Shown piece after piece: positions 9,469-22,646 of a DNA stretch of 60,936 nucleotides. How positions within the stretch are numbered: the first letter of the stretch is position 1; each line of letters opens with the position of its first letter. Origin of the DNA: a virus. The stretch lies in IMG/VR virus record IMGVR_UViG_3300028592_000010, positions 1-60,936 of that record, one strand, 5' to 3'. The position numbers and the translations under genes were made by a program. The notes under the pieces were generated by a model. That model was not told the origin of the DNA, searched no databases, and saw nothing but the letters and a program-made list of their open reading frames with translations.

Positions 9469-10270
9469 CTACGACGTGCTGCTCACCGGCCCCGCCAAGG
9501 TGCTCAAGCCGGACGGCAAGCCACTGTGCGTCTACCTTCCCGGCGCCCTCCGCGAATGGTCGCAGAGTGACACCATCTACGCCATTTTGCACGGGCTACG
9601 CACACACACCACCAACAACCGGGGCATGAGCGGCGGCGCAGGCGTCGACACCTCCCCCAGCGGCAAGCGCTACGCCCAGACCACCGCGTCCACCATCATC
9701 GGCGCCTTCGACCCGAACAGTTACCGCCGCTACTGCCGCCTCACCGCCTGGACCGGGCGCAACCTGCCGCAGTGGGAGGCGCTCCAGCCGTTCCTCGCCG
9801 CCATCGCCGAGCGGATGGCCGAGCACGTTCCCGACCGGCACGGGGCCCAGATGGCCGAGGTCATGCGCACCCAGCCCGAGTGGGTCGTGCCGGGCACCCC
9901 GTTCACCACGGTCACGGTCAACAACACCTACCCGACCGGGATGCACACCGACAAGGGCGACCTCGATGCCGGGTTCTCCACCCTCGCCACACTGCGCCGA
10001 GGCGGCGCGTATACGGGCGGCAACCTGATGTTCCCCGAGTACCGGTGCGCCGTGGACATGCGCGACGGAGACCTGCTGCTCATGGACGCCCACGAGTGGC
10101 ACGCCAACGCCGACATCGTCTGTGCCTGCGGAAACTCCATCCGGGCGATCTGTCCGACGTGCGGGGCGGAGCGCATCTCGGTGGTGAGTTACTTCCGCAC
10201 CGACATGGTCAACTGCAAGGACGCGGCCACCGAGGAACGGCGGGCCGCCGAGTGGTGGGCGAAGCGGTGA
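9389..10270 (+). CDS. TET/JBP-family 2-oxoglutarate/Fe(II) dioxygenase
   Basis: The ATG follows GGAAGGGGGG. The protein has 293 residues and a double-stranded beta-helix signature: VNNTYPTGMHTDKGD supplies HxD (H186, D188), DAHEWHAN supplies the distal His (H235 or H238), and ERISVVSYFRTD supplies the Arg near 270 that binds 2-oxoglutarate. This pattern is typical of phage TET/JBP enzymes that oxidise the methyl group of thymine or 5-methylcytosine in DNA. Between the distal His and the Arg lies a CACGN...CPTCG insertion, a likely zinc knuckle. It could supply the hydroxymethyl base used by the kinase/transferase set at 4463-6838. Confidence 0.85.
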   Translation: MIELRVRSRLRQEDLLPKTGKVLGPADYDVLLTGPAKVLKPDGKPLCVYLPGALREWSQSDTIYAILHGLRTHTTNNRGMSGGAGVDTSPSGKRYAQTTASTIIGAFDPNSYRRYCRLTAWTGRNLPQWEALQPFLAAIAERMAEHVPDRHGAQMAEVMRTQPEWVVPGTPFTTVTVNNTYPTGMHTDKGDLDAGFSTLATLRRGGAYTGGNLMFPEYRCAVDMRDGDLLLMDAHEWHANADIVCACGNSIRAICPTCGAERISVVSYFRTDMVNCKDAATEERRAAEWWAKR

Positions 10271-14947: not shown

Positions 14948-15434
14948 CGCCATTCGGGACCTGCGCGAGTGGGTCACCCCGCCGCCGGCCCCGGACGCCG
15001 AGGTGCAGGCGTGGCCGCTGTTCAGCGGCTGGGAGTATGGCGGTGTCTACTGCGCCAAGGACGAGTGCGGCTGCGCGGCCGAGGGCAGTGAACTGATCCG
15101 GGGCGACGACCGGATGGGGGACGAGGCCGAGACCTTCACGTTGGCTGACCTCCACCGCCGCATCGGTGGGGCGGGCCGAGGAGGAGGGGGTGTGATGGGG
15201 CGCGGCCAGACCACTGCCGAGTTCGCGGCCAGCCACGGCCCGAACTGGGTCTACGACGGCGGCCTGCCCGGCGATCCCGGCTGGGTGAGCGACGCGGCGC
15301 GCGAGTTCGGGGACCTGCTCGGCCTGGACGCGGAAGCCCTGGACGACGCTGCGGCGGAGCACGGGTGGGAGTTCCATGACCCGGGCTACGACGAGAAGAT
15401 CCAGCAGCTTGCCCTGACGTGGGGCGAACAGTGA
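14898..15434 (+). CDS. hypothetical protein, 178 aa
   Basis: The first half carries VYCAKDECGCAAEG, a Cys cluster. A glycine-rich linker (GGAGRGGGGVMGRG) then leads to an acidic, Trp-containing second half (LDAEALDDAAAEHGWEFHDPG). It may be two fused small proteins; GTG and ATG codons in the linker could start a second product. The function is unknown. Confidence 0.6.
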   Translation: MTDDRTLPEGLTRAMFDAIRDLREWVTPPPAPDAEVQAWPLFSGWEYGGVYCAKDECGCAAEGSELIRGDDRMGDEAETFTLADLHRRIGGAGRGGGGVMGRGQTTAEFAASHGPNWVYDGGLPGDPGWVSDAAREFGDLLGLDAEALDDAAAEHGWEFHDPGYDEKIQQLALTWGEQ

Positions 15435-15703
15435 GCAGCCCGGCCGACCGCCTGGCGGATGGGCGGGGCAGCCTGCGCGACCTGGCCGAGTTGGACCAGG
15501 CCCGGGCGGCCACCGTCGAGGACCTGAACCGCCTGCTGGTCGGCTACGCCCAGGCCATGCGCGACCTCGGGCCCGACCGGGCCCACTGCGCCTACGTCAC
15601 CGGCCTGCTGCGTGACTGGGACGAGGTCACCATGGCCTGCGCCCTCGTCGAGGCAGTGGAGCGCCTGGTGCGGCGCCTGGACGAGCAGGGGGCGCGCACC
15701 TAG
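15431..15703 (+). CDS. hypothetical helical protein ending in an in-frame amber codon
   Basis: GTG 15431 overlaps the previous stop. The 90 residues are helical (YAQAMRDLGPDRAHC, LVEAVERLVRRLDEQ). It ends with TAG at 15701-15703. The next gene starts only four codons later in the same frame, so suppression of this TAG would fuse the two proteins. The TAG is also part of the -10-like TAGTCT for the next gene. Confidence 0.65.
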   Translation: MSSPADRLADGRGSLRDLAELDQARAATVEDLNRLLVGYAQAMRDLGPDRAHCAYVTGLLRDWDEVTMACALVEAVERLVRRLDEQGART

Positions 15704-15712
15704 TCTGGTGTC

Positions 15713-15943
15713 GTGACAGACACGACGGAGCCATACGACCACGACCCGAACTACGACCCGGCGGCGGCCCGCAAGGCCGAGAAGCACGAGGCCTTCGTGG
15801 CCGAGTACCAGACCCGCTACGGCGGCGCCGGGCGTGACGCCGAGTCGGTGGCCAGAGTCTTCGGCCTGGAGGGCGAGCCGCCCAGCAACGAGGTCGAGGT
15901 GGACCCGGACGCCGAGTCGTCCCCCAACGTCGGGCACAAGTAG
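15713..15943 (+). CDS. hypothetical acidic protein, TAG-ended
   Basis: GTG 15713 has no ribosome site and lies six bases after TAGTCT (15701-15706), consistent with a leaderless message. It encodes 76 acidic residues (TDTTEPYDHDPNYDP). It is in frame with the preceding gene across one TAG, and its own stop is TAG immediately before the endolysin. Confidence 0.65.
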   Translation: MTDTTEPYDHDPNYDPAAARKAEKHEAFVAEYQTRYGGAGRDAESVARVFGLEGEPPSNEVEVDPDAESSPNVGHK

Positions 15944-15945
15944 CC

Positions 15946-16827
15946 ATGACGGGCATCGCGCCCATCTGGGCCGGCTACCCCAAGTCGTACACGCCCGGGC
16001 GCGCGCGAGCCCCCAAGCTGTGCGTCATCCACTACACGGCCGGCAACGCTGGCCCGACCGCCGCCGAGGCGGGCGTGGACTACGACAAGCGGCGCACGGA
16101 CGGCACCTCGTGCCACATCTTCGCCGACTCGCTGGGCACCCCGCTGATGGAGGTGCCGCTGGGCGACCGTTCGCACAGCGCCTACTTTCACGGCAACGAG
16201 ATCGGCGTGCACATCGAGACGTGCGACACGGTGCAGAGCCGAGCCGGCTGGCTGGACGCGGTCAGCTACCCGACCATCGTCAACGCGGCCGGGACGGCCC
16301 GGTGGGTGTGCGACACGCTGGGCCTTCCCTTGCGGCGGATGACGGTGGCCCAGGTGCGGGAGGCGTACTACGGCAGCGACCCGGGCGGCATCTGCGACCA
16401 CTGGGACGTGACCCGGGCGTTCCCCGAGGACGGCGGCAACCACACCGACATGGGGCCCGAGTTCCCGTGGGATGTGTTCATGGAGTTGGTGCTCGACCAG
16501 GACACGAGAAGGGACTACGGCATGCTGCTGTTCGGGAAGTCAGGCGCGGGCCAGTTCGGCGAGGACACCGACCACTCCCGCTGGTGGGTGGGCGACGGCC
16601 TCCACCACACCGAGCGCACCGAGGAACAGGCCAGCCTCCTCCTCGGTGCGGTGAACAAGTACTACGGCCTCAAGCTGGAGATCATGTCGTGGGGCGACAC
16701 CAGCCCCGAGTGGATGCAGGGCATCGTCGGCCCCGTGCCAGCCGGGAGCGGGGGCGTCGGGGGTCTGGGCTTCGCCGAGGTCGTGGAGGCGGCCCGCCAG
16801 GGCGCCGAGAAGGCCGAGGACAGCTAG
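15946..16827 (+). CDS. endolysin, N-acetylmuramoyl-L-alanine amidase
   Basis: The first 160 residues are an amidase-2/PGRP-type domain: H29 in VIHYTAGN, E91 in VHIETCD, and H152 and D154 in DHWDVTRAF. These match the zinc ligands of enzymes that cut the amide bond between MurNAc and L-Ala in the host wall. The C-terminal 130 residues have no recognised wall-binding motif and end in a helical tail. There is no signal peptide, so a holin must release it. The stop is TAG. Confidence 0.9.
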   Translation: MTGIAPIWAGYPKSYTPGRARAPKLCVIHYTAGNAGPTAAEAGVDYDKRRTDGTSCHIFADSLGTPLMEVPLGDRSHSAYFHGNEIGVHIETCDTVQSRAGWLDAVSYPTIVNAAGTARWVCDTLGLPLRRMTVAQVREAYYGSDPGGICDHWDVTRAFPEDGGNHTDMGPEFPWDVFMELVLDQDTRRDYGMLLFGKSGAGQFGEDTDHSRWWVGDGLHHTERTEEQASLLLGAVNKYYGLKLEIMSWGDTSPEWMQGIVGPVPAGSGGVGGLGFAEVVEAARQGAEKAEDS

Positions 16828-17414: not shown

Positions 17415-17624
17415 GTGATCACCAAGCGCAAGAGCAGCCACTCCGCCGAGAGCGCCAACTGCGTTGCGCTGTGGGACTTCGGCGACGAGGTGGCCCTCGG
17501 CGACACCAAGGGCCCCAACTGGCAGATGGCCTGGTTCGACCGGGCGGCCTGGACCGACTTCGTCCAGGCGGTCGGACGGGGCGAGTTCGACCGGCCACGA
17601 GGCCGTGCTGCGCCGTCTCTGTAA
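17415..17624 (+). CDS. DUF397 domain protein
   Basis: GTG 17415 gives 69 residues: KSSHSAESANCVALWD, then VALGDTKGPNWQMAWF and AWTDFVQAVGRGEFD. This is the DUF397 pattern found in Streptomyces and related actinomycetes, where such proteins usually pair with an XRE-family regulator. No XRE gene is adjacent; the nearest XRE gene is 20240-20482 on the other strand. A host-acquired antagonist or regulator is a fair inference. A strong terminator follows. Confidence 0.8.
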   Translation: MITKRKSSHSAESANCVALWDFGDEVALGDTKGPNWQMAWFDRAAWTDFVQAVGRGEFDRPRGRAAPSL

Positions 17625-17689
17625 GGTGTGAACGCGAGGGCGCCGCCGAGAGGCCCCTAACCCCCACGGCCCACTCCCCTACGGACCAA

Positions 17690-17728
17690 CGAGAACGGCC
17701 CCGAGCTTGATGCTCGGGGCCGTTCTCG
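17690..17728. terminator. bidirectional terminator hairpin
   Basis: A perfect 17-bp stem (17690-17706 with 17712-17728) has a TTGAT loop. It separates the plus-strand DUF397 gene from the minus-strand tRNA region and can stop transcription from both sides. Confidence 0.8.
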
Positions 17729-17744
17729 GTCCATGACGGGAACG

Positions 17745-17815
17745 GGACCGCACGGGGAGTCGAACCCCGCCTAGGCGCTTTAGAGGCGCTTGTGCTGCCG
17801 ACACACCCTGCGGTC
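17745..17815 (-). tRNA. suppressor tRNA, anticodon CUA (reads UAG)
   Basis: Read on the minus strand, GACCGCA pairs with TGCGGTC over seven bases. The D stem is GTGT/GCAC with GG in the loop. The anticodon arm is AGCGC-CTCTAAA-GCGCC with U33 followed by CTA, and the T arm is CGGGG-TTCGACT-CCCCG. The anticodon (17781-17783) is CUA. Weak points are an A-C mismatch closing the anticodon stem, G at position 8 and a four-base variable loop. CCA is not encoded. Charging specificity cannot be seen. Confidence 0.7.
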
Positions 17816-17839
17816 AAGGCGGTGCCCGAGGTCAAGGCG

Positions 17840-17963
17840 GCTCGGCGCCTTGTTCGGCTGCTCTACCGGGCTGAGCTACCCCACTCCCCGAGGGGAGCGT
17901 GGCGGGATTCGAACCCGCGACCTGCCGATTACCTGTGAAGTAAGCCGGGCCTGCGCACCGAGC
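17840..17963 (-). tRNA. candidate circularly permuted tRNA (3' half before 5' half)
   Basis: On the minus strand a canonical 3' half comes first (TCGGC-AGGTC, T arm GCGGG-TTCGAAT-CCCGC, CACGCTC; 17928-17895). A canonical 5' half follows after about eight bases (GAGTGGG, D arm GCTC..GAGC, GCCGA; 17886-17854). GCCGA and TCGGC form a perfect anticodon stem, and the acceptor strands pair at six of seven positions. Outside them GCGCCGAGC (17848-17840) pairs with GCTCGGTGC (17963-17955). The anticodon cannot be read, and one extra G sits after the acceptor strand. Two degenerate tRNA fragments are the alternative. Confidence 0.35.
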
Positions 17964-18033
17964 ACCACCACCGGACGATCGCCGACACGTGCGGGCCAGC
18001 GAGGTTTCCGGGTACCTCTTGAGTTGTGCACCC

Positions 18034-18087
18034 GGGGCCACCCGAAGGCGATCTTCCCGCAGCGTCCTATCCACGACCACGTGGCCC
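18034..18087 (-). ncRNA. tRNA-like element with acceptor and D arm only
   Basis: On the minus strand GGGCCAC and GTGGCCC form a perfect seven-base stem. They enclose a D-arm-like hairpin (GGTC-GTGGATA-GGAC) and one short hairpin. The space is about 20 bases too short for normal anticodon and T arms. It is probably a decayed or minimal tRNA. Confidence 0.35.
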
Positions 18088-18218
18088 GGGCCAACTTGGG
18101 GCCCTCCGAGAAATTGCACCTCGCCTTCGCCCCCCGAAGGGCGCGTGCTCTGGTTACACCTGAGGGCCATGGGGGCCGGTCTGGGCCCGGGGCAAGCTAG
18201 CCTCCCAGACCGGCACCG

Positions 18219-18294
18219 AAACGGGAGTCGGATTCGAACCGACGACCTCCAGCTTATGAGGCTGGCGAGCACAACCGAACTGCTCCATCCCGTC
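18219..18294 (-). tRNA. tRNA-Met (CAU)
   Basis: All arms are present on the minus strand: acceptor GACGGGA/TCCCGTT (first pair G-U), D arm GAGC..GCTC, anticodon arm CCAGC-CTCATAA-GCTGG, variable AGGTC, and T arm GTCGG-TTCGAAT-CCGAC. The anticodon is CAU. The regular first pair argues for an elongator rather than initiator tRNA. CCA is not encoded. Confidence 0.93.
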
Positions 18295-18538
18295 AGGCGC
18301 CCGTGGAGTCGTTACGGTCCTCCTCGGGCGTGTCGACCCTACCATGACAGGACTTCCCGCGCTTGCGATCCACCTCAGCCTTAGTGCGAGAACTAAGGTG
18401 GTAGCCCCCGGCGACCGGGCACCAGTAGACCCGGCCCTCCTCGGTCGGGGGCAGCCGACTCAGCGCGTGCTTGCCCATCTCGTAGGTGCGGTAGGTGTTC
18501 TTGCGGCACCGCTTGCACTTGGCCTTGTGGTTCCGCAT
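18293..18538 (-). CDS. small zinc-ribbon protein, 81 aa
   Basis: It begins with CKRCRKNTYRTYEMGKHAL and has a later YWCPVAGGYH, a pattern seen in small actinophage zinc proteins. It is very basic. The stop overlaps the first base of the tRNA-Met gene, so the tRNAs may be processed from this operon transcript. The function is unknown. Confidence 0.65.
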   Translation of the reverse strand: MRNHKAKCKRCRKNTYRTYEMGKHALSRLPPTEEGRVYWCPVAGGYHLSSRTKAEVDRKRGKSCHGRVDTPEEDRNDSTGA

Positions 18539-18541
18539 GGA

Positions 18542-18688
18542 CTACGACCACCAGATGTCGCGCTTCACGGCCCTCTCCTTCCGTCGTCTCCAGGTGAGCA
18601 CACCGAACAGTGTGCCCAGGGTCGCACCCAGCACGATGAGCATGTAGCCCATCAGGCGAACGACCTCGACGCGGTCCTGCCAGGTCAT
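18542..18688 (-). CDS. single-pass membrane peptide, 48 aa
   Basis: One membrane helix (MLIVLGATLGTLFGVLTW) is followed by a strongly basic tail (RRRKERAVKRD). It overlaps the upstream gene by four bases and ends in TAG. The basic tail suggests an inside C-terminus. Confidence 0.55.
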   Translation of the reverse strand: MTWQDRVEVVRLMGYMLIVLGATLGTLFGVLTWRRRKERAVKRDIWWS

Positions 18689-19113
18689 CGCCACTTCCTC
18701 CACTTTCGTGCCCGCTTAGGCCGCGTGTGCAGGCGCCTCATGGCGTCGAGGTCGGCCGCGAACACTGCGCCCCGGAATGGGCCCCACTCGCGCGACTTGT
18801 CCGTGTCGGTCCAGTGGTAGTGGCCCCGCCCACCGGTGGCCCGGATGCAGGTCCAGGCGCCGTGGCGCCAGCGGTAGCCCCGCCGGTGCATGCGGCGCCC
18901 TTGCATGTCGACGATGAAGACCCGCCGACGACGGGCGCGGCGGCGCTCACCGTGGTCCATCTGCCGGGGCCGCCAGTACTGGTAGCCCTTGCGCCGGCAC
19001 GGCCTGCGGAACCAGCGGTCGCCCAGGCGGGGATCCTCGCGCCACGCCCAGAGCCGCTTGACGTGGGGCGGCGGTTCTGGGTCGTAGGTGAGGTTGTAGC
19101 GGTAGACGATCAC
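18685..19113 (-). CDS. basic Trp/Tyr-rich protein, 142 aa
   Basis: GTG at 19113 overlaps the upstream stop as GTGA. The protein is unusually rich in Arg, Trp and His (RRPCRRKGYQYWRPRQMDHG, RRGYRWRHGAWTC). It may bind nucleic acid, but there is no named domain. The sequence stays open far upstream, so a longer N-terminus cannot be ruled out. Confidence 0.6.
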   Translation of the reverse strand: MIVYRYNLTYDPEPPPHVKRLWAWREDPRLGDRWFRRPCRRKGYQYWRPRQMDHGERRRARRRRVFIVDMQGRRMHRRGYRWRHGAWTCIRATGGRGHYHWTDTDKSREWGPFRGAVFAADLDAMRRLHTRPKRARKWRKWR

Positions 19114-19358
19114 CACTTCACCCGCAGCAGGGAGGCTCGGTGCTCCAGCAACATGCGCAGCACCTCGTCCACGGTGCCGCCGGGCAGGGAGGCCAGCAGC
19201 GCGTTGACGATGGCGCGCGCATCCAGCCGGTGCAGCCTGCGCCCATCCGCCCGGTCGAGGTTGTCCGGCATCGGCATGTCGGCCTCGATGCGCAGGTCCT
19301 CCACCTCCTCGGCGCCGTGTGGCTGGGCCTTCCACACCCAGACCGGCTCGGCGCTCAT
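19110..19358 (-). CDS. hypothetical protein, 82 aa
   Basis: ATG at 19358 overlaps the upstream stop. The C-terminal half is helical (DARAIVNALLASLPGGTVDEVLRMLLEH). It is an operon member with no recognised motif. Confidence 0.6.
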   Translation of the reverse strand: MSAEPVWVWKAQPHGAEEVEDLRIEADMPMPDNLDRADGRRLHRLDARAIVNALLASLPGGTVDEVLRMLLEHRASLLRVKW

Positions 19359-19693
19359 GGCCGCTTCCAGACCCACCGCCCGGGGCGGCGCGGGTCGGGG
19401 TACGGCACCAGGTCCCACGTGTAGACCAGGTAGCCTGCCGAGCCGAACGCCACCAGGATCAGGAACATCCCTCCGGCGACCGGGTAGGCAATGGGCGCCT
19501 CCTCGCCGAACGTCGTGGACAGGGCGTAGCCGAAGAGGCTGAGCATCGACGCGCCGAACATCGCCATGGCGGTGCGGCGAGGGAAGGGGCGGAACCGGCC
19601 GAACACCGACCGCCAGGCGTCCAGCGCGTAGGCCGGGACGCCGATGGTGATGCCCGCCAGCAGCAGGGCCACCCCAACGTCATGCGCGGTCAC
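19355..19693 (-). CDS. integral membrane protein, 112 aa
   Basis: There are three likely membrane helices: residues 5-23, about 42-60, and 71-90 (AGGMFLILVAFGSAGYLVY). It lies among other small membrane genes of the minus-strand operon. A role in superinfection exclusion or envelope change is possible but unproven. Confidence 0.6.
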   Translation of the reverse strand: MTAHDVGVALLLAGITIGVPAYALDAWRSVFGRFRPFPRRTAMAMFGASMLSLFGYALSTTFGEEAPIAYPVAGGMFLILVAFGSAGYLVYTWDLVPYPDPRRPGRWVWKRP

Positions 19694-19818
19694 CTGTCCT
19701 CACCCCTCTTCTTGGCGATGGCGGCTGCGATGAAGAACGCGGAGAGCGCCCAGGCGATGCTGCAAACGAGGGCGACTCCCTCGACGGCCTCGGGCCAGGT
19801 GTCACTTGCCAGGATCAC
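19690..19818 (-). CDS. single-pass membrane peptide, 42 aa
   Basis: GTG at 19818 starts a peptide with one helix (ALVCSIAWALSAFFIAAAI) and a KKRGEDR tail. It overlaps genes on both sides. Confidence 0.5.
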   Translation of the reverse strand: MILASDTWPEAVEGVALVCSIAWALSAFFIAAAIAKKRGEDR

Positions 19819-19972
19819 GGAGCGCCTCCTCGTGCTTGGCGGGCCTGATGGGGCGCTCGGTCCTCCTGGACCACTTGATCTCGGGCCCGCTGGCGAGGAA
19901 CACCAGCCCGAGCAACAAGAAGACCACCGACACGATGGCGGTAGCGGCGACGAACGCTTCGGGCCAGTTCAT
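19802..19972 (-). CDS. single-pass membrane peptide, 56 aa
   Basis: The ATG at 19972 follows AGGAGGGTCCCC on the minus strand. The helix is AIVSVVFLLLGLVFLASG, followed by a basic charged tail. It overlaps the next peptide by 17 bases. Confidence 0.55.
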   Translation of the reverse strand: MNWPEAFVAATAIVSVVFLLLGLVFLASGPEIKWSRRTERPIRPAKHEEALRDPGK

Positions 19973-19982
19973 GGGGACCCTC

Positions 19983-20243
19983 CTACAGGTCGTGGGCGCA
20001 GAACGGGCAGACGTGGATGTCCTCCACCCGCGTGTTGGCAATGAGGAACGGCTTGCTCACCGAGGGCACCACCTCGGCGGCCATCCGCTCAGCGTGGGCC
20101 TCGATGAGGGCCGCCTCGGTGGGGAACCAGTGGAAGCACTCCCCGCACAGGGTGCCGGTGGTGAGGTCGGTCTGGGGCTCGTCCTCGTTGTGGAAGTGGC
20201 AGTGGTCCTGGTCGCAGGCGCGGGTCGGTTCGTGGGGCATCAT
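19983..20243 (-). CDS. Cys/His-rich zinc-binding protein, 86 aa
   Basis: It has CDQDHCHFHNED, LCGECFHWFPTEAALIEAH and CPFCAHDL, enough ligands for two zinc fingers. The middle one resembles a C2H2-like unit. The ATG overlaps the XRE gene stop behind GGAGG. It ends in TAG. DNA or RNA binding is likely. Confidence 0.65.
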   Translation of the reverse strand: MMPHEPTRACDQDHCHFHNEDEPQTDLTTGTLCGECFHWFPTEAALIEAHAERMAAEVVPSVSKPFLIANTRVEDIHVCPFCAHDL

Positions 20244-20482
20244 GACCTCCACTCGATGCGCAGCCGCCCATCGAGGGCGTCCACCAGGCGGACGAGGGTC
20301 AGCGTCTCGGGCACGACCTCTCCCATTTCGATCTCGCTGATGCTGCTCTGGACGATGCCCGAGATGGCCTCCAGTTCCCGCTGGCTCAGGCCGAGCCGCA
20401 GGCGGCGCAGCTTGAGTTGCTGGCCCAGGAGGCGCACTTCGAACTCGTCGGTCGCGAACGACCCGCGCGGACTGCGGGGCAC
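20240..20482 (-). CDS. XRE-family helix-turn-helix regulator
   Basis: Eighty residues contain one HTH (KLRRLRLGLSQRELEAISGIVQSSISEIEMGEVVPETLTLVRLVDAL), the classic Cro/CI-type spacing. GTG 20482 overlaps the TAG of the upstream gene by one base. It may control the minus-strand block or interact with the DUF397 protein at 17415; both are inferences. Confidence 0.85.
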   Translation of the reverse strand: MPRSPRGSFATDEFEVRLLGQQLKLRRLRLGLSQRELEAISGIVQSSISEIEMGEVVPETLTLVRLVDALDGRLRIEWRS

Positions 20483-20904
20483 TACTTCAGCCGCCGGGGC
20501 AGCTTGAGCCGCAGGTCCTCGTAGCGGCGGAACGCCTGCCACCGGTGGGCGTGGCTGGAGACGTTGTAGAACACCAACTGCTCGTTGATCCCGGTCGGGA
20601 CGTACAGGGTGGCGTCGATGAGCCACCAGGTGACCGGCAACGTCCGATTCCAGTACTTCAGGTCCATCGCCCACAACTGCACCCCCACGGGCGAGCCCGT
20701 GCCCGGCGCGTCCTCGGCGGCCTGAACCTGCTGCTCCATACGGCACCGGGCCCACTGCACGTTCCACCAGCGCGGCGAGAATGCCGCGTTGCGCAACTGC
20801 GGGTCGACCTCGTCCACGTAGTCCACGAGGATCTGGCGGGCCCACCGACCGGCCTTCGGCCAAGAGGCCATCCGGCCGGTCTCCAGGTAAGCGTCAGTCG
20901 TCAT
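20482..20904 (-). CDS. hypothetical protein, 140 aa
   Basis: It begins MTTDAYLETGRMASW and is rich in Trp, Tyr and Arg with no Cys-metal motif. Strand-like VTWWLIDATLYVPTG suggests an alpha/beta domain. It ends in TAG. No family is recognised. Confidence 0.6.
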   Translation of the reverse strand: MTTDAYLETGRMASWPKAGRWARQILVDYVDEVDPQLRNAAFSPRWWNVQWARCRMEQQVQAAEDAPGTGSPVGVQLWAMDLKYWNRTLPVTWWLIDATLYVPTGINEQLVFYNVSSHAHRWQAFRRYEDLRLKLPRRLK

Positions 20905-21247
20905 ACGAGCCCACCCTGGCCAGCCGTGCCTTCCACTGCCGGGTCAACTCGTTGTAGGCCGAGAAGTCCGAGGCCGAGAAGCCGTGCCGGACGGACCATG
21001 AGGTGGAGCCGATCCAGTGGTCGGCGGCCGGCCCGTCGTAGTTCGCGGTCACCCGGTGGTAGGCCCGGGCCCGAATGTCCTCGGTCTTCCCGCCCGAGGC
21101 CCAGCCCAGCACGCAGTTGCACGGCTGCACCAGGTCGAGGTCGTCCATGTGGTCGAGCACGTTGTCCAGCTTGAGCCCGGCCAGGCCGCCGTGCTTGCGC
21201 AGCCAGCGCAGGCCCCGCTCGATCTGCTTGCTGTAGTCGACGCTCAC
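20894..21247 (-). CDS. hypothetical protein, paralogue A of tandem pair
   Basis: GTG at 21247 gives 117 residues. It aligns with the adjacent protein 21244-21648 along its length: a helical IERGLRWLRKHG start, a CVLGWASG block, AYHRVTANY, and a WKARL end. The pair looks like an old tandem duplication. No catalytic residues are evident, and the function is unknown. Confidence 0.65.
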   Translation of the reverse strand: MSVDYSKQIERGLRWLRKHGGLAGLKLDNVLDHMDDLDLVQPCNCVLGWASGGKTEDIRARAYHRVTANYDGPAADHWIGSTSWSVRHGFSASDFSAYNELTRQWKARLARVGSYDD

Positions 21248-21648
21248 CGGTGGTCCTCCTCGCACAGCGGCGCCAGGGCCGCCTTCCACTCGGCCGTGAG
21301 GGCCTCGTAGTCGGCCAGGCTGTGGGGCTCGTCGTCGCCGAGGCGGAAGCCCCGGTTCGCCGCCCAGCGGTAGCCGACGCTGCGATCGAAGCCCTGGGCG
21401 CGGATGCGGGCGTGGTAGGCGTGGGCGCGGTCGACCTCACTGCCGAACCCGCTGGACCAGCCGAGCACGCACGACTCGGGCATGTTCACGTCCAACTCGT
21501 CGAGGTGGACGCACAGGTTCTGGAGGAGGTGGTCATGCAAGGGCCCCTCGGTGATGAGCCAGGCGATGCCGGCCTGCACCCGCTCGGCGTAGCTCGCGTC
21601 GGTGTTGGGCCGGTCCTGTTCCGTGTAGACGGCAAGGTCGCTGTCCAT
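21244..21648 (-). CDS. hypothetical protein, paralogue B of tandem pair
   Basis: ATG at 21648 follows GAAGGGAGC, a leader also seen before other minus-strand genes here. The 134 residues share VQAGIAWLITEG, CVLGWSSG, AYHARI and WKAAL blocks with paralogue A. It is the first gene after the TATGGT promoter box at 21684-21679. Confidence 0.65.
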   Translation of the reverse strand: MDSDLAVYTEQDRPNTDASYAERVQAGIAWLITEGPLHDHLLQNLCVHLDELDVNMPESCVLGWSSGFGSEVDRAHAYHARIRAQGFDRSVGYRWAANRGFRLGDDEPHSLADYEALTAEWKAALAPLCEEDHR

Positions 21649-21678
21649 GTCCGTGCTCCCTTCGGTTTGTGTCCCCCG

Positions 21679-21684
21679 ACCATA
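21679..21684 (-). promoter_or_regulatory. minus-strand -10 box TATGGT
   Basis: On the minus strand TG-TATGGTC-N4-GACACA precedes the ATG at 21648. It is one of the recurring early-type boxes, here driving the operon that runs down to 18293. Confidence 0.55.
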
Positions 21685-21702
21685 CACGATCCCCCGAAAC
21701 CG

Positions 21703-21747
21703 ATGAAGCCCCCCCACGTCATCTCGCGATGCGTGAGGGGGCTTCAT
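21703..21747 (-). terminator. terminator hairpin after 21752-21943
   Basis: ATGAAGCCCCC (21703-21713) pairs with GGGGGCTTCAT (21737-21747), with a further internal stem. It lies just downstream of the minus-strand gene ending at 21752 and just before the next operon's promoter. Confidence 0.7.
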
Positions 21748-21751
21748 GGTC

Positions 21752-21943
21752 CTACAGGATGATCGTCGCCTGGACCCGCTTGACCTCCACGAGCCCGTCC
21801 CACTTGCCCGAACCCAGGTAGTTCTCGGTCGTCCGGAGTTCCCGCAGGGCGTCCTTGAGCGCCTCAGCGGTGGTGTTCCAGTGGTACTCGGCCTGCCAGT
21901 CGTCCACGTTCACGTCGAGGTCGAGGGTGACGGTGATCTTCAC
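21752..21943 (-). CDS. hypothetical protein, 63 aa
   Basis: GTG at 21943 follows GAAGGGAGC. The sequence starts with a strand (KITVTLDLDVNVDDW) and then a helix (TAEALKDALRELRTTENY), like a small ferredoxin-like or phage DUF fold. The function is unknown. Confidence 0.6.
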   Translation of the reverse strand: MKITVTLDLDVNVDDWQAEYHWNTTAEALKDALRELRTTENYLGSGKWDGLVEVKRVQATIIL

Positions 21944-21986
21944 GGCCGTGCTCCCTTCAGTGCTCCCGCCCGGTAGCGGGGAGACG

Positions 21987-22057
21987 TGGACCCGGCGGGA
22001 TTTGAACCCGCATCCTCCGGCCGATCGCCGGTGCTCTACCAGTGAGCTACGTGGCCC
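21987..22057 (-). tRNA. degenerate tRNA, anticodon not readable
   Basis: The minus strand shows a canonical D arm (GCTC-ACTGGTA-GAGC) and T arm (GCGGG-TTCAAAT-CCCGC). The acceptor pairs only partly (GGGCC with GGTCC). The anticodon stem CCGGC/GCCGG leaves a five-base loop, GATCG; forcing seven bases gives no U33. It is probably a pseudogene or a tRNA with a deleted anticodon loop. Confidence 0.5.
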
Positions 22058-22084
22058 TGGCCGCCCCCGAGGGGGCGGGTGGTG

Positions 22085-22342
22085 CTACACCTCGTCCAGC
22101 CAGGACCCGGTGGTCTTGCTGTGCTCGGGCACGACGGCCCAGGAGTTGGCGTCCGTGGTCAGTTCGACCTGGTTGCCGCACTTGGTGCAGATGCGGGTGA
22201 GCGTCCGGTTCGGCACGCGCCGGTCGGCGCTGTCGGTGACCTTGACGCGCCGACCGCCCTGCGTGCACCGTCTGGCCGCCATGTACTCGTCCCGCATCCG
22301 CTGGCCATCGGCGACTACGTCCGACCAGTCCAGGTCTCGCAT
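22085..22342 (-). CDS. small protein with CTKCG knuckle, 85 aa
   Basis: ATG at 22342 follows GAAGGGAGC. The protein is basic near the middle (RRCTQGGRRVKV) and has ICTKCGNQVEL, half of a zinc ribbon. A Ser/Thr-rich tail follows. The function is unknown. Confidence 0.6.
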   Translation of the reverse strand: MRDLDWSDVVADGQRMRDEYMAARRCTQGGRRVKVTDSADRRVPNRTLTRICTKCGNQVELTTDANSWAVVPEHSKTTGSWLDEV

Positions 22343-22421
22343 GATGCGCTCCCTTCGTTGGGCCCTCCGGTAGGGCCTCCGCGCCGTCCGAGGTGTCGAA
22401 CCCCGGTGCCTGTCTGGTCTG

Positions 22422-22427
22422 ACCATA
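22422..22427 (-). promoter_or_regulatory. minus-strand -10 box TATGGT
   Basis: TG-TATGGTC-N4-CAGACA on the minus strand lies about 80 bases before ATG 22342. The leader between them contains a T-arm-like hairpin (CGGGG-TTCGACA-CCTCG) and a GGCCCT/AGGGCC hairpin. Confidence 0.5.
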
Positions 22428-22457
22428 CACGCACGCACCTGCGACAGCAACCCTCAG

Positions 22458-22646
22458 CTACTTCTTGCCACGGCCACCAACGCCGTAGCCCTCGGTGTCA
22501 GGGTCATCGGTGGAGCGACCCTTGCCGCCCCCCGAGGCCGGCGACTTGCCCGTACCCTTGCCCGGCCGACCGCCCGGCGGGATGTCGCGACCCCGCTTGG
22601 AGTCGTCCGTGTTGCCCACGCCGTAGCCTTCGTGTTCCTGAGCCAT
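22458..22646 (-). CDS. low-complexity Gly/Lys protein with repeated GYGVG motif
   Basis: ATG at 22646 follows GAAAGGGG. The 62 residues contain EGYGVGN near the start and EGYGVGG near the end, separated by a Gly/Pro/Lys-rich segment. It is probably disordered. It may be a peptide tag or an RNA-binding protein; neither is supported. Confidence 0.55.
   Translation of the reverse strand: MAQEHEGYGVGNTDDSKRGRDIPPGGRPGKGTGKSPASGGGKGRSTDDPDTEGYGVGGRGKK

What the first reader, a model, noticed from the sequence alone, without database searches (positions are those of the whole stretch)
17745..17815. Phage-encoded amber-suppressor tRNA
All four arms fold and the anticodon loop is CTCTAAA, giving anticodon CUA after U33. 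Such tRNAs decode UAG as an amino acid. In some phages stop-codon recoding is proposed to time late or lysis gene expression. Here most genes end in TGA, and a minority end in TAG.
Basis: partly seen in the sequence, partly recalled or inferred. Interest (0 to 1): 0.8.

Follow-up and report, generated by a model that had tools for sequence, protein, structure and literature searches.

The report
Phage amber tRNA among tRNA mimics
This bacterial virus carries a real gene for a transfer RNA that should read the UAG stop signal, but it shows no sign of a rewritten genetic code, and the gene sits beside stranger tRNA look-alikes that cannot read any codon.

Summary
A tRNA gene on the minus strand at 17744-17815 has a canonical CTCTAAA anticodon loop (CUA), and shuffled sequence gave no CUA call. 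The proposed role, stop-codon recoding that times lysis, is not supported: no conserved gene has an in-frame TAG, TAG is an ordinary stop (14 of 105 genes), sequence after TAG is not coding, and TAG usage in relatives does not track presence of a CUA tRNA. Amber tRNAs of this type are common in viral contigs, so this is a new member of a known kind. Its amino acid and targets are unknown.

Its setting is the more interesting part. The gene is an insertion of about 86 nt into a conserved non-coding unit: a tRNA-bodied RNA with a closed anticodon arm (94% identical in the nearest relative), a Y-RNA-like RNA without a Ro60 gene in the record, and a hairpin. The nearest relative carries a different CUA tRNA elsewhere, suggesting separate acquisition. 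In related actinophages 30 of 42 tRNA-family RNAs lack a usable anticodon loop, against 8 of 116 in tRNA-rich relatives; one closed family shows clear covariation. Their function is unknown.

The parts
17744..17815 (-). amber (CUA) tRNA gene; anticodon loop CTCTAAA at 17779-17785
   Evidence: ARAGORN; RF00005 40.1 bits; no CUA call in 100 shuffled windows
17821..17966 (-). Y-RNA-like RNA: T-arm, then hairpin, then D-arm, closed by a long stem (GGTGCTCG / CGGGCACC)
   Evidence: RF02553 YrlA 38.3 bits at 17834-17948, below the gathering score of 69; core nearly identical in L085 and the closing stem keeps pairing there
18097..18168 (-). tRNA-like RNA with a closed anticodon arm (about 4-nt loop in a TTCG context); no usable anticodon
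   Evidence: 94% identical to L085 c11315-11386; fold with acceptor and T arms imposed; its unconstrained fold is not a cloverleaf
18218..18294 (-). tRNA-Met (CAU), initiator-like body
   Evidence: ARAGORN; RF00005 60.3 bits
21986..22056 (-). tRNA-like RNA with a 5-nt loop (CCGGC-GATCG-GCCGG); ARAGORN's 'Asp(atc)' label is an artefact
   Evidence: RF00005 52.6 bits; fold; classed non-canonical
17690..17728 (-). terminator-like hairpin (17-bp arms) ending the array
   Evidence: inverted repeat; conserved in L085 with paired changes
15431..15703 (+). gp38, ends in TAG; the TAG lies in TAGTCT, a possible -10 box of leaderless gp39
   Evidence: same arrangement in L085; TANNNT peak 12-13 nt before starts
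15713..15943 (+). gp39, in frame with gp38 behind its TAG, ends in TAG
15946..16827 (+). endolysin (Amidase_2), ends in TAG; 74% identical orthologue in L085 ends at the same place

Best explanation
It is a genuine phage amber (CUA) tRNA gene that most likely works as a weak-to-moderate, non-essential suppressor. It would be transcribed with the adjoining ncRNA unit up to the hairpin at 17690-17728, matured and given its CCA end by host enzymes (CCA is not encoded), charged by a host aminoacyl-tRNA synthetase, and compete with release factor 1 at UAG, giving some C-terminally extended proteins. The phage keeps the standard code and no identifiable phage gene needs the tRNA. Shown: gene, fold, loop, separate presence in a relative, absence of recoding. 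Inferred: transcription, charging, read-through and any benefit to the phage.
For: tRNA call and chance control. The loop CTCTAAA recurs in seven CUA tRNAs with otherwise different bodies: window, L085, L226, L227, L231 and two in L138. The window gene is an insertion of about 86 nt between the Y-RNA-like RNA and the hairpin, while L085 has a CUA tRNA of a different body at another place; the two are 69% identical, within the range seen between unrelated tRNAs here. This suggests two acquisitions of the same anticodon. The standard code is kept: no split conserved genes, non-coding sequence after TAG, TAG usage independent of CUA presence.
Against: U8 and A14 are missing, the anticodon stem has 4 pairs, a non-cloverleaf fold is predicted to be more stable, and C73 without G-1 matches no common identity set (identity sets from general knowledge). 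The better-conserved RNAs beside it cannot decode. No expression data.
Confidence: 0.6

Rival explanations
1. Non-decoding tRNA mimic: the CUA tRNA belongs to a set of tRNA-bodied RNAs whose job is to engage enzymes that recognise the tRNA body or tail (host nucleases, toxins, modifying enzymes), and CUA is kept because it disturbs sense decoding least.
For: It lies in an array with a closed-anticodon tRNA-like RNA and an orphan Y-RNA-like RNA; 30 of 42 tRNA-family RNAs in relatives lack a usable anticodon loop, against 8 of 116 in tRNA-rich relatives; odd body and C73. Defences that attack tRNA bodies or tails exist (PMC12851939).
Against: The loop is a perfect canonical CTCTAAA and is the same in CUA tRNAs with different bodies, as selection for decoding would give.
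Confidence: 0.2
2. Stop-codon recoding (code 15 type) that times late or lysis genes.
For: A CUA tRNA is present; the endolysin and the two genes before it end in TAG in both the window and L085; gp38-TAG-gp39 is in frame in both.
Against: No in-frame TAG in any conserved gene; extensions are not coding on average; the gp38/gp39 register is explained by a -10-like TAGTCT 12 nt before the gp39 start; TAG is common as a stop in CUA-bearing relatives.
Confidence: 0.06
3. Decaying tRNA gene without function.
For: Low score (40 bits against 62.6 for the L085 gene), U8 and A14 missing, alternative fold.
Against: Acceptor, D and T stems fully paired and loop intact in a compact, 92% coding genome.
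Confidence: 0.14

Closest known systems
Predicted amber suppressor tRNA of Stenotrophomonas phage Summit (PMC9022506)
   Same: One CUA tRNA among a few tRNAs, standard code, some TAG-ended genes, no target found
   Different: There no TAG gene is followed by an in-frame gene; here gp38-gp39 is, though a leaderless start explains it; here the tRNA sits in an array with tRNA mimics and a Y-RNA-like RNA
Code-15 recoded phages (PMC9523058, PMC10879173)
   Same: Phage-encoded CUA tRNA
   Different: Those have many in-frame TAGs, notably in structural and lysis genes, and some have theta ribozymes beside the tRNA; none seen here
Anticodon-loop-altered phage tRNAs of mycobacteriophages (PMC10264068)
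   Same: Actinophage tRNAs departing from host anticodon loops
   Different: Those are reported as loop mutations in tRNAs that still decode; the tRNA-like RNAs next to this gene and in relatives have closed, extended or missing anticodon arms
Bacterial and phage Y RNAs (YrlA, RF02553); matches lie next to Ro-like genes in phages A3Wally and Sparky
   Same: T-arm then D-arm order, tRNA-like module
   Different: No Ro60 (TROVE) gene in this record or in G002, G003, G030; score below the family cut-off

Membership tests
Phage amber suppressor tRNA | tRNA cloverleaf | tested here: met
   ARAGORN and RF00005 40.1 bits; but U8 and A14 absent and the cloverleaf is not the predicted minimum-energy fold
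Phage amber suppressor tRNA | 7-nt loop with U33, CUA and purine 37 | tested here: met
   CTCTAAA
Phage amber suppressor tRNA | recognisable aminoacylation identity | tested here: inconclusive
   C73 without G-1; no clear identity set
Phage amber suppressor tRNA | reads UAG in cells | not testable with these tools
   needs expression and a reporter
Code-15 recoded phage | in-frame TAG in conserved genes | tested here: not met
Code-15 recoded phage | TAG no longer a common stop | tested here: not met
   14 of 105 genes
Pyrrolysine tRNA (ARAGORN label) | pyrrolysyl-tRNA synthetase in the genome | tested here: not met
   no PF01409 match in the record; the host was not examined
Pyrrolysine tRNA (ARAGORN label) | 5-nt D-loop lacking G18G19 | tested here: not met
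   7-nt D-loop with GG; defining feature from PMC7609411
YrlA Y RNA (neighbour) | score above the RF02553 gathering threshold | tested here: not met
   38.3 against 69 bits
YrlA Y RNA (neighbour) | T-arm, hairpin, D-arm order inside a closing stem | tested here: met
YrlA Y RNA (neighbour) | Ro60 gene nearby | tested here: not met
   no TROVE domain in the record
Theta-ribozyme-associated suppressor tRNA | HDV-like ribozyme adjoining the tRNA | tested here: inconclusive
   no HDV-like match in the Rfam scan of 17500-22500 at E<=10, but it was not checked that Rfam holds a theta-ribozyme model

The most novel reading that the evidence does not exclude
The amber tRNA is part of an undescribed class of phage non-coding RNAs that keep a tRNA body but have had the anticodon arm closed, extended or removed. 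A clade of actinophages carries several per genome, sometimes with an orphan Y-RNA-like RNA, and uses them as tRNA mimics: decoys for enzymes acting on the tRNA body or tail, or ribosome binders. One extended-arm subfamily presents an invariant GUUACGAC loop, exactly complementary to the 16S rRNA segment next to the decoding site.
Probability: 0.35. Interest if true: 0.82.

Novelty: new member of a known kind. Interest (0 to 1): 0.5.

Why it matters
Phage amber tRNAs are often read as signs of recoding; this case shows one without any recoding, apparently gained separately in two related phages, which makes 'what is a non-recoding suppressor for?' testable. The surrounding RNAs matter more if confirmed: tRNA bodies stripped of their anticodon, kept by selection in many actinophages, would be a new kind of phage RNA and a lead to host factors that recognise tRNA shape.

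Tried and rejected
Recoding: rejected. gp38-TAG-gp39 as programmed read-through: the frame is conserved in L085, but the TAG lies in a -10-like TAGTCT and the linker is not conserved. gp44-TAG-gp43 (TAG TCC ATG) in frame: 2 of 8 close TAG pairs in the window are in frame, as chance gives. TAG avoidance in late genes (1 of 47 against 13 of 58, Fisher p=0.003): not matched in CUA-bearing relatives, where 7 of 16 late orthologues in G027 end in TAG, and UAG is generally avoided in highly expressed bacterial genes (PMC8954436). Coding extensions after TAG 4 of 14 against 7 of 83 after TGA: p=0.05, explained by neighbouring genes in frame. Pyrrolysine: rejected. Permuted tRNA reading of 17834-17948: replaced by the Y-RNA-like match. 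Near DNA search in isolated phages: one 45-base match, uninformative. A first version of the anticodon-arm classifier was too strict on controls and was replaced. The gene caller failed on AT-rich contigs, so recoding was not assessed there. PADLOC scan of ten window proteins, most of them flanking the array: nothing.

Full report
WHAT IS THERE. The window is a whole IMG/VR record of 60,936 bases, classed linear, so it may still be a fragment of the genome. GC is 0.695, and it encodes an actinophage: terminase, portal, major capsid protein, tape measure, RecT-like protein and an Amidase_2 endolysin. Capsid relatives are phages of Microbacterium, Mycobacterium, Gordonia, Streptomyces and Actinoplanes and sequences in Streptomyces, Actinoplanes, Rhodococcus, Nocardia and Gordonia genomes. 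At 17744-17815, minus strand, ARAGORN calls a CUA tRNA, and RF00005 gives 40.1 bits. The loop is CTCTAAA. One hundred shuffled windows gave 7 tRNA calls and no CUA. The body is somewhat odd: G8 and G14 in place of U8 and A14, a four-pair anticodon stem, C73, and an alternative fold predicted to be more stable than the cloverleaf.

THE ARRAY. On the minus strand, in order of transcription, lie tRNA-Met (18218-18294), a closed-arm tRNA-like RNA (18097-18168), a Y-RNA-like RNA (about 17821-17966), the CUA tRNA, and a terminator-like hairpin (17690-17728). A further tRNA-like RNA with a 5-nt loop lies at 21986-22056. In the nearest relative, L085 (23 kb record), the closed-arm RNA, the Y-RNA-like RNA and the hairpin are conserved in the same order, but there is no CUA tRNA between Y RNA and hairpin: in the window it is an insertion of about 86 nt. 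L085 has its own CUA tRNA (62.6 bits) upstream of the unit. The two CUA tRNAs are 69% identical, within the range between unrelated tRNAs here, whereas the closed-arm RNA is 94% identical. The simplest reading is separate acquisition of CUA tRNAs beside a conserved unit; strong divergence with relocation of one gene is the alternative.

IS THE CODE CHANGED? No. My own gene caller finds 105 genes, 92% coding, ending TGA 83, TAG 14, TAA 8. Structural genes align with orthologues without a TAG break. Extensions past TAG score as non-coding on average. TAG is rarer in genes 59-105 (1 of 47) than in genes 1-58 (13 of 58), but relatives with CUA tRNAs do not avoid it: TAG ends 21-45% of genes in G021, G023, G027 and G030, and 16-28% in the seven relatives without a CUA call. 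TGA dominance is partly due to overlapping stop-start codons: most close TGA pairs are in the register expected for ATGA or GTGA overlaps. The endolysin and the two genes before it end in TAG in both phages, and gp38 and gp39 are in frame across the TAG. This TAG lies in TAGTCT, 12 nt before the gp39 start, where TANNNT motifs peak in several of these genomes, so a leaderless promoter explains the spacing.

HOW COMMON ARE CUA tRNAs? Of the 85 loci then checked (80 from that scan plus five others already in hand) ARAGORN confirmed a CUA tRNA in 67. The kind is well known; phage Summit (PMC9022506) is a close parallel with the same negative search for targets.

THE TRNA MIMICS. Among RF00005 matches above the gathering score in tRNA-poor relatives plus the window, 30 of 42 unique sequences have no 7-nt U33 loop on a paired stem. 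In six loci from tRNA-rich relatives the same test fails 8 of 116, and several of those eight are near-normal loops with C33. The odd RNAs fall into closed arms with 3-5-nt loops, arms extended by 20-50 nt, and RNAs of 58-59 nt with no anticodon arm at all. One closed family with a TCAC loop is found in 11 viral stretches. An alignment of 11 distinct sequences of this type has 99.6% paired cells and 8 pairs with changes on both sides, two of them in the closed arm; no shuffle of 500 reached the observed covariation. Most of these sequences were chosen by the closed-arm motif, so the inner three pairs are fixed by the search and say nothing; acceptor-stem and outer-arm changes are free of that. 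Relatedness inflates shuffle tests, but sliding the pairing by 1-3 columns abolishes the signal.

AN UNEXPLAINED MOTIF. Six unique extended-arm RNAs from relatives share an invariant GUUACGAC loop; five were found without using the motif. It is the reverse complement of the universal 16S segment GUCGUAAC (from my own knowledge of 16S rRNA; not aligned here). An 8-mer match to a 1.5-kb RNA is not rare (about 2%), so this is only a lead. The motif is not in the window's array.

Y RNA. The Y-RNA-like RNA scores 38 bits, below the family cut-off, but BLAST from this region hits unannotated stretches beside Ro-like genes in phages A3Wally and Sparky, which supports its identity. TROVE domains are present in tRNA-rich relatives G021, G023, G027 and G028 and absent from the window, G002, G003 and G030. 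Records may be incomplete, so absence is provisional.

HOW IT MOST LIKELY WORKS. Shown: a tRNA gene with a canonical amber loop, a standard code, and no identifiable phage target. Inferred: co-transcription with the ncRNA unit, host processing and CCA addition, charging by a host synthetase, and partial read-through of UAG in competition with release factor 1. I rate this at 0.6. The main rival is that it belongs with its neighbours as a tRNA-shaped RNA that does not act by decoding (0.2).

LIMITS. One genome and one fragmentary close relative; no expression data; gene calls and the anticodon-arm test are my own scripts; the library searched is open-access PubMed Central only, and the main bacterial Y RNA paper (Chen 2014) was not held, so novelty of the mimics is not established.

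Noticed in passing
window 18097-18168 (-), 21986-22056 (-); L218-L225, L234, L087: tRNA-bodied RNAs with closed, extended or missing anticodon arms, recurrent in related actinophages; 30 of 42 tRNA-family hits against 8 of 116 in tRNA-rich relatives.
   Followed up: partly
window 17821-17966 (-); L085 c11155-11303; G002:C1:4323-4384: Y-RNA-like RNA in phages with no detectable Ro60 (TROVE) gene in the record.
   Followed up: partly
L218 15717-15811, L222 c13111-13208, L223 9197-9299, L395, L403, L468: Extended-arm tRNA-like RNAs with an invariant GUUACGAC loop, complementary to 16S rRNA GUCGUAAC near the decoding site; may be chance.
   Followed up: partly
L220 15359-15416; L225 c11978-12036: tRNA-family matches of only 58-59 nt (55 and 51 bits) with no anticodon arm.
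   Followed up: no
window 9476-10270 (+): Tet/JBP-type 2OG oxygenase domain (Pfam E=1e-16), suggesting base hypermodification; one of its PHROG matches is labelled queuine tRNA-ribosyltransferase.
   Followed up: no
G027 (record of L038): A CUA-tRNA-bearing phage that ends 45% of its genes in TAG, more than any other stop codon.
   Followed up: partly
L223 9467-9538: ARAGORN 'tRNA-Pyl (cta)' here has a 5-nt loop and no U33, so it is not a suppressor; such labels need checking.
   Followed up: yes
window 15700-15715 (+): TAG stop of gp38 embedded in a -10-like TAGTCT before a leaderless-type start of gp39, same in L085.
   Followed up: partly
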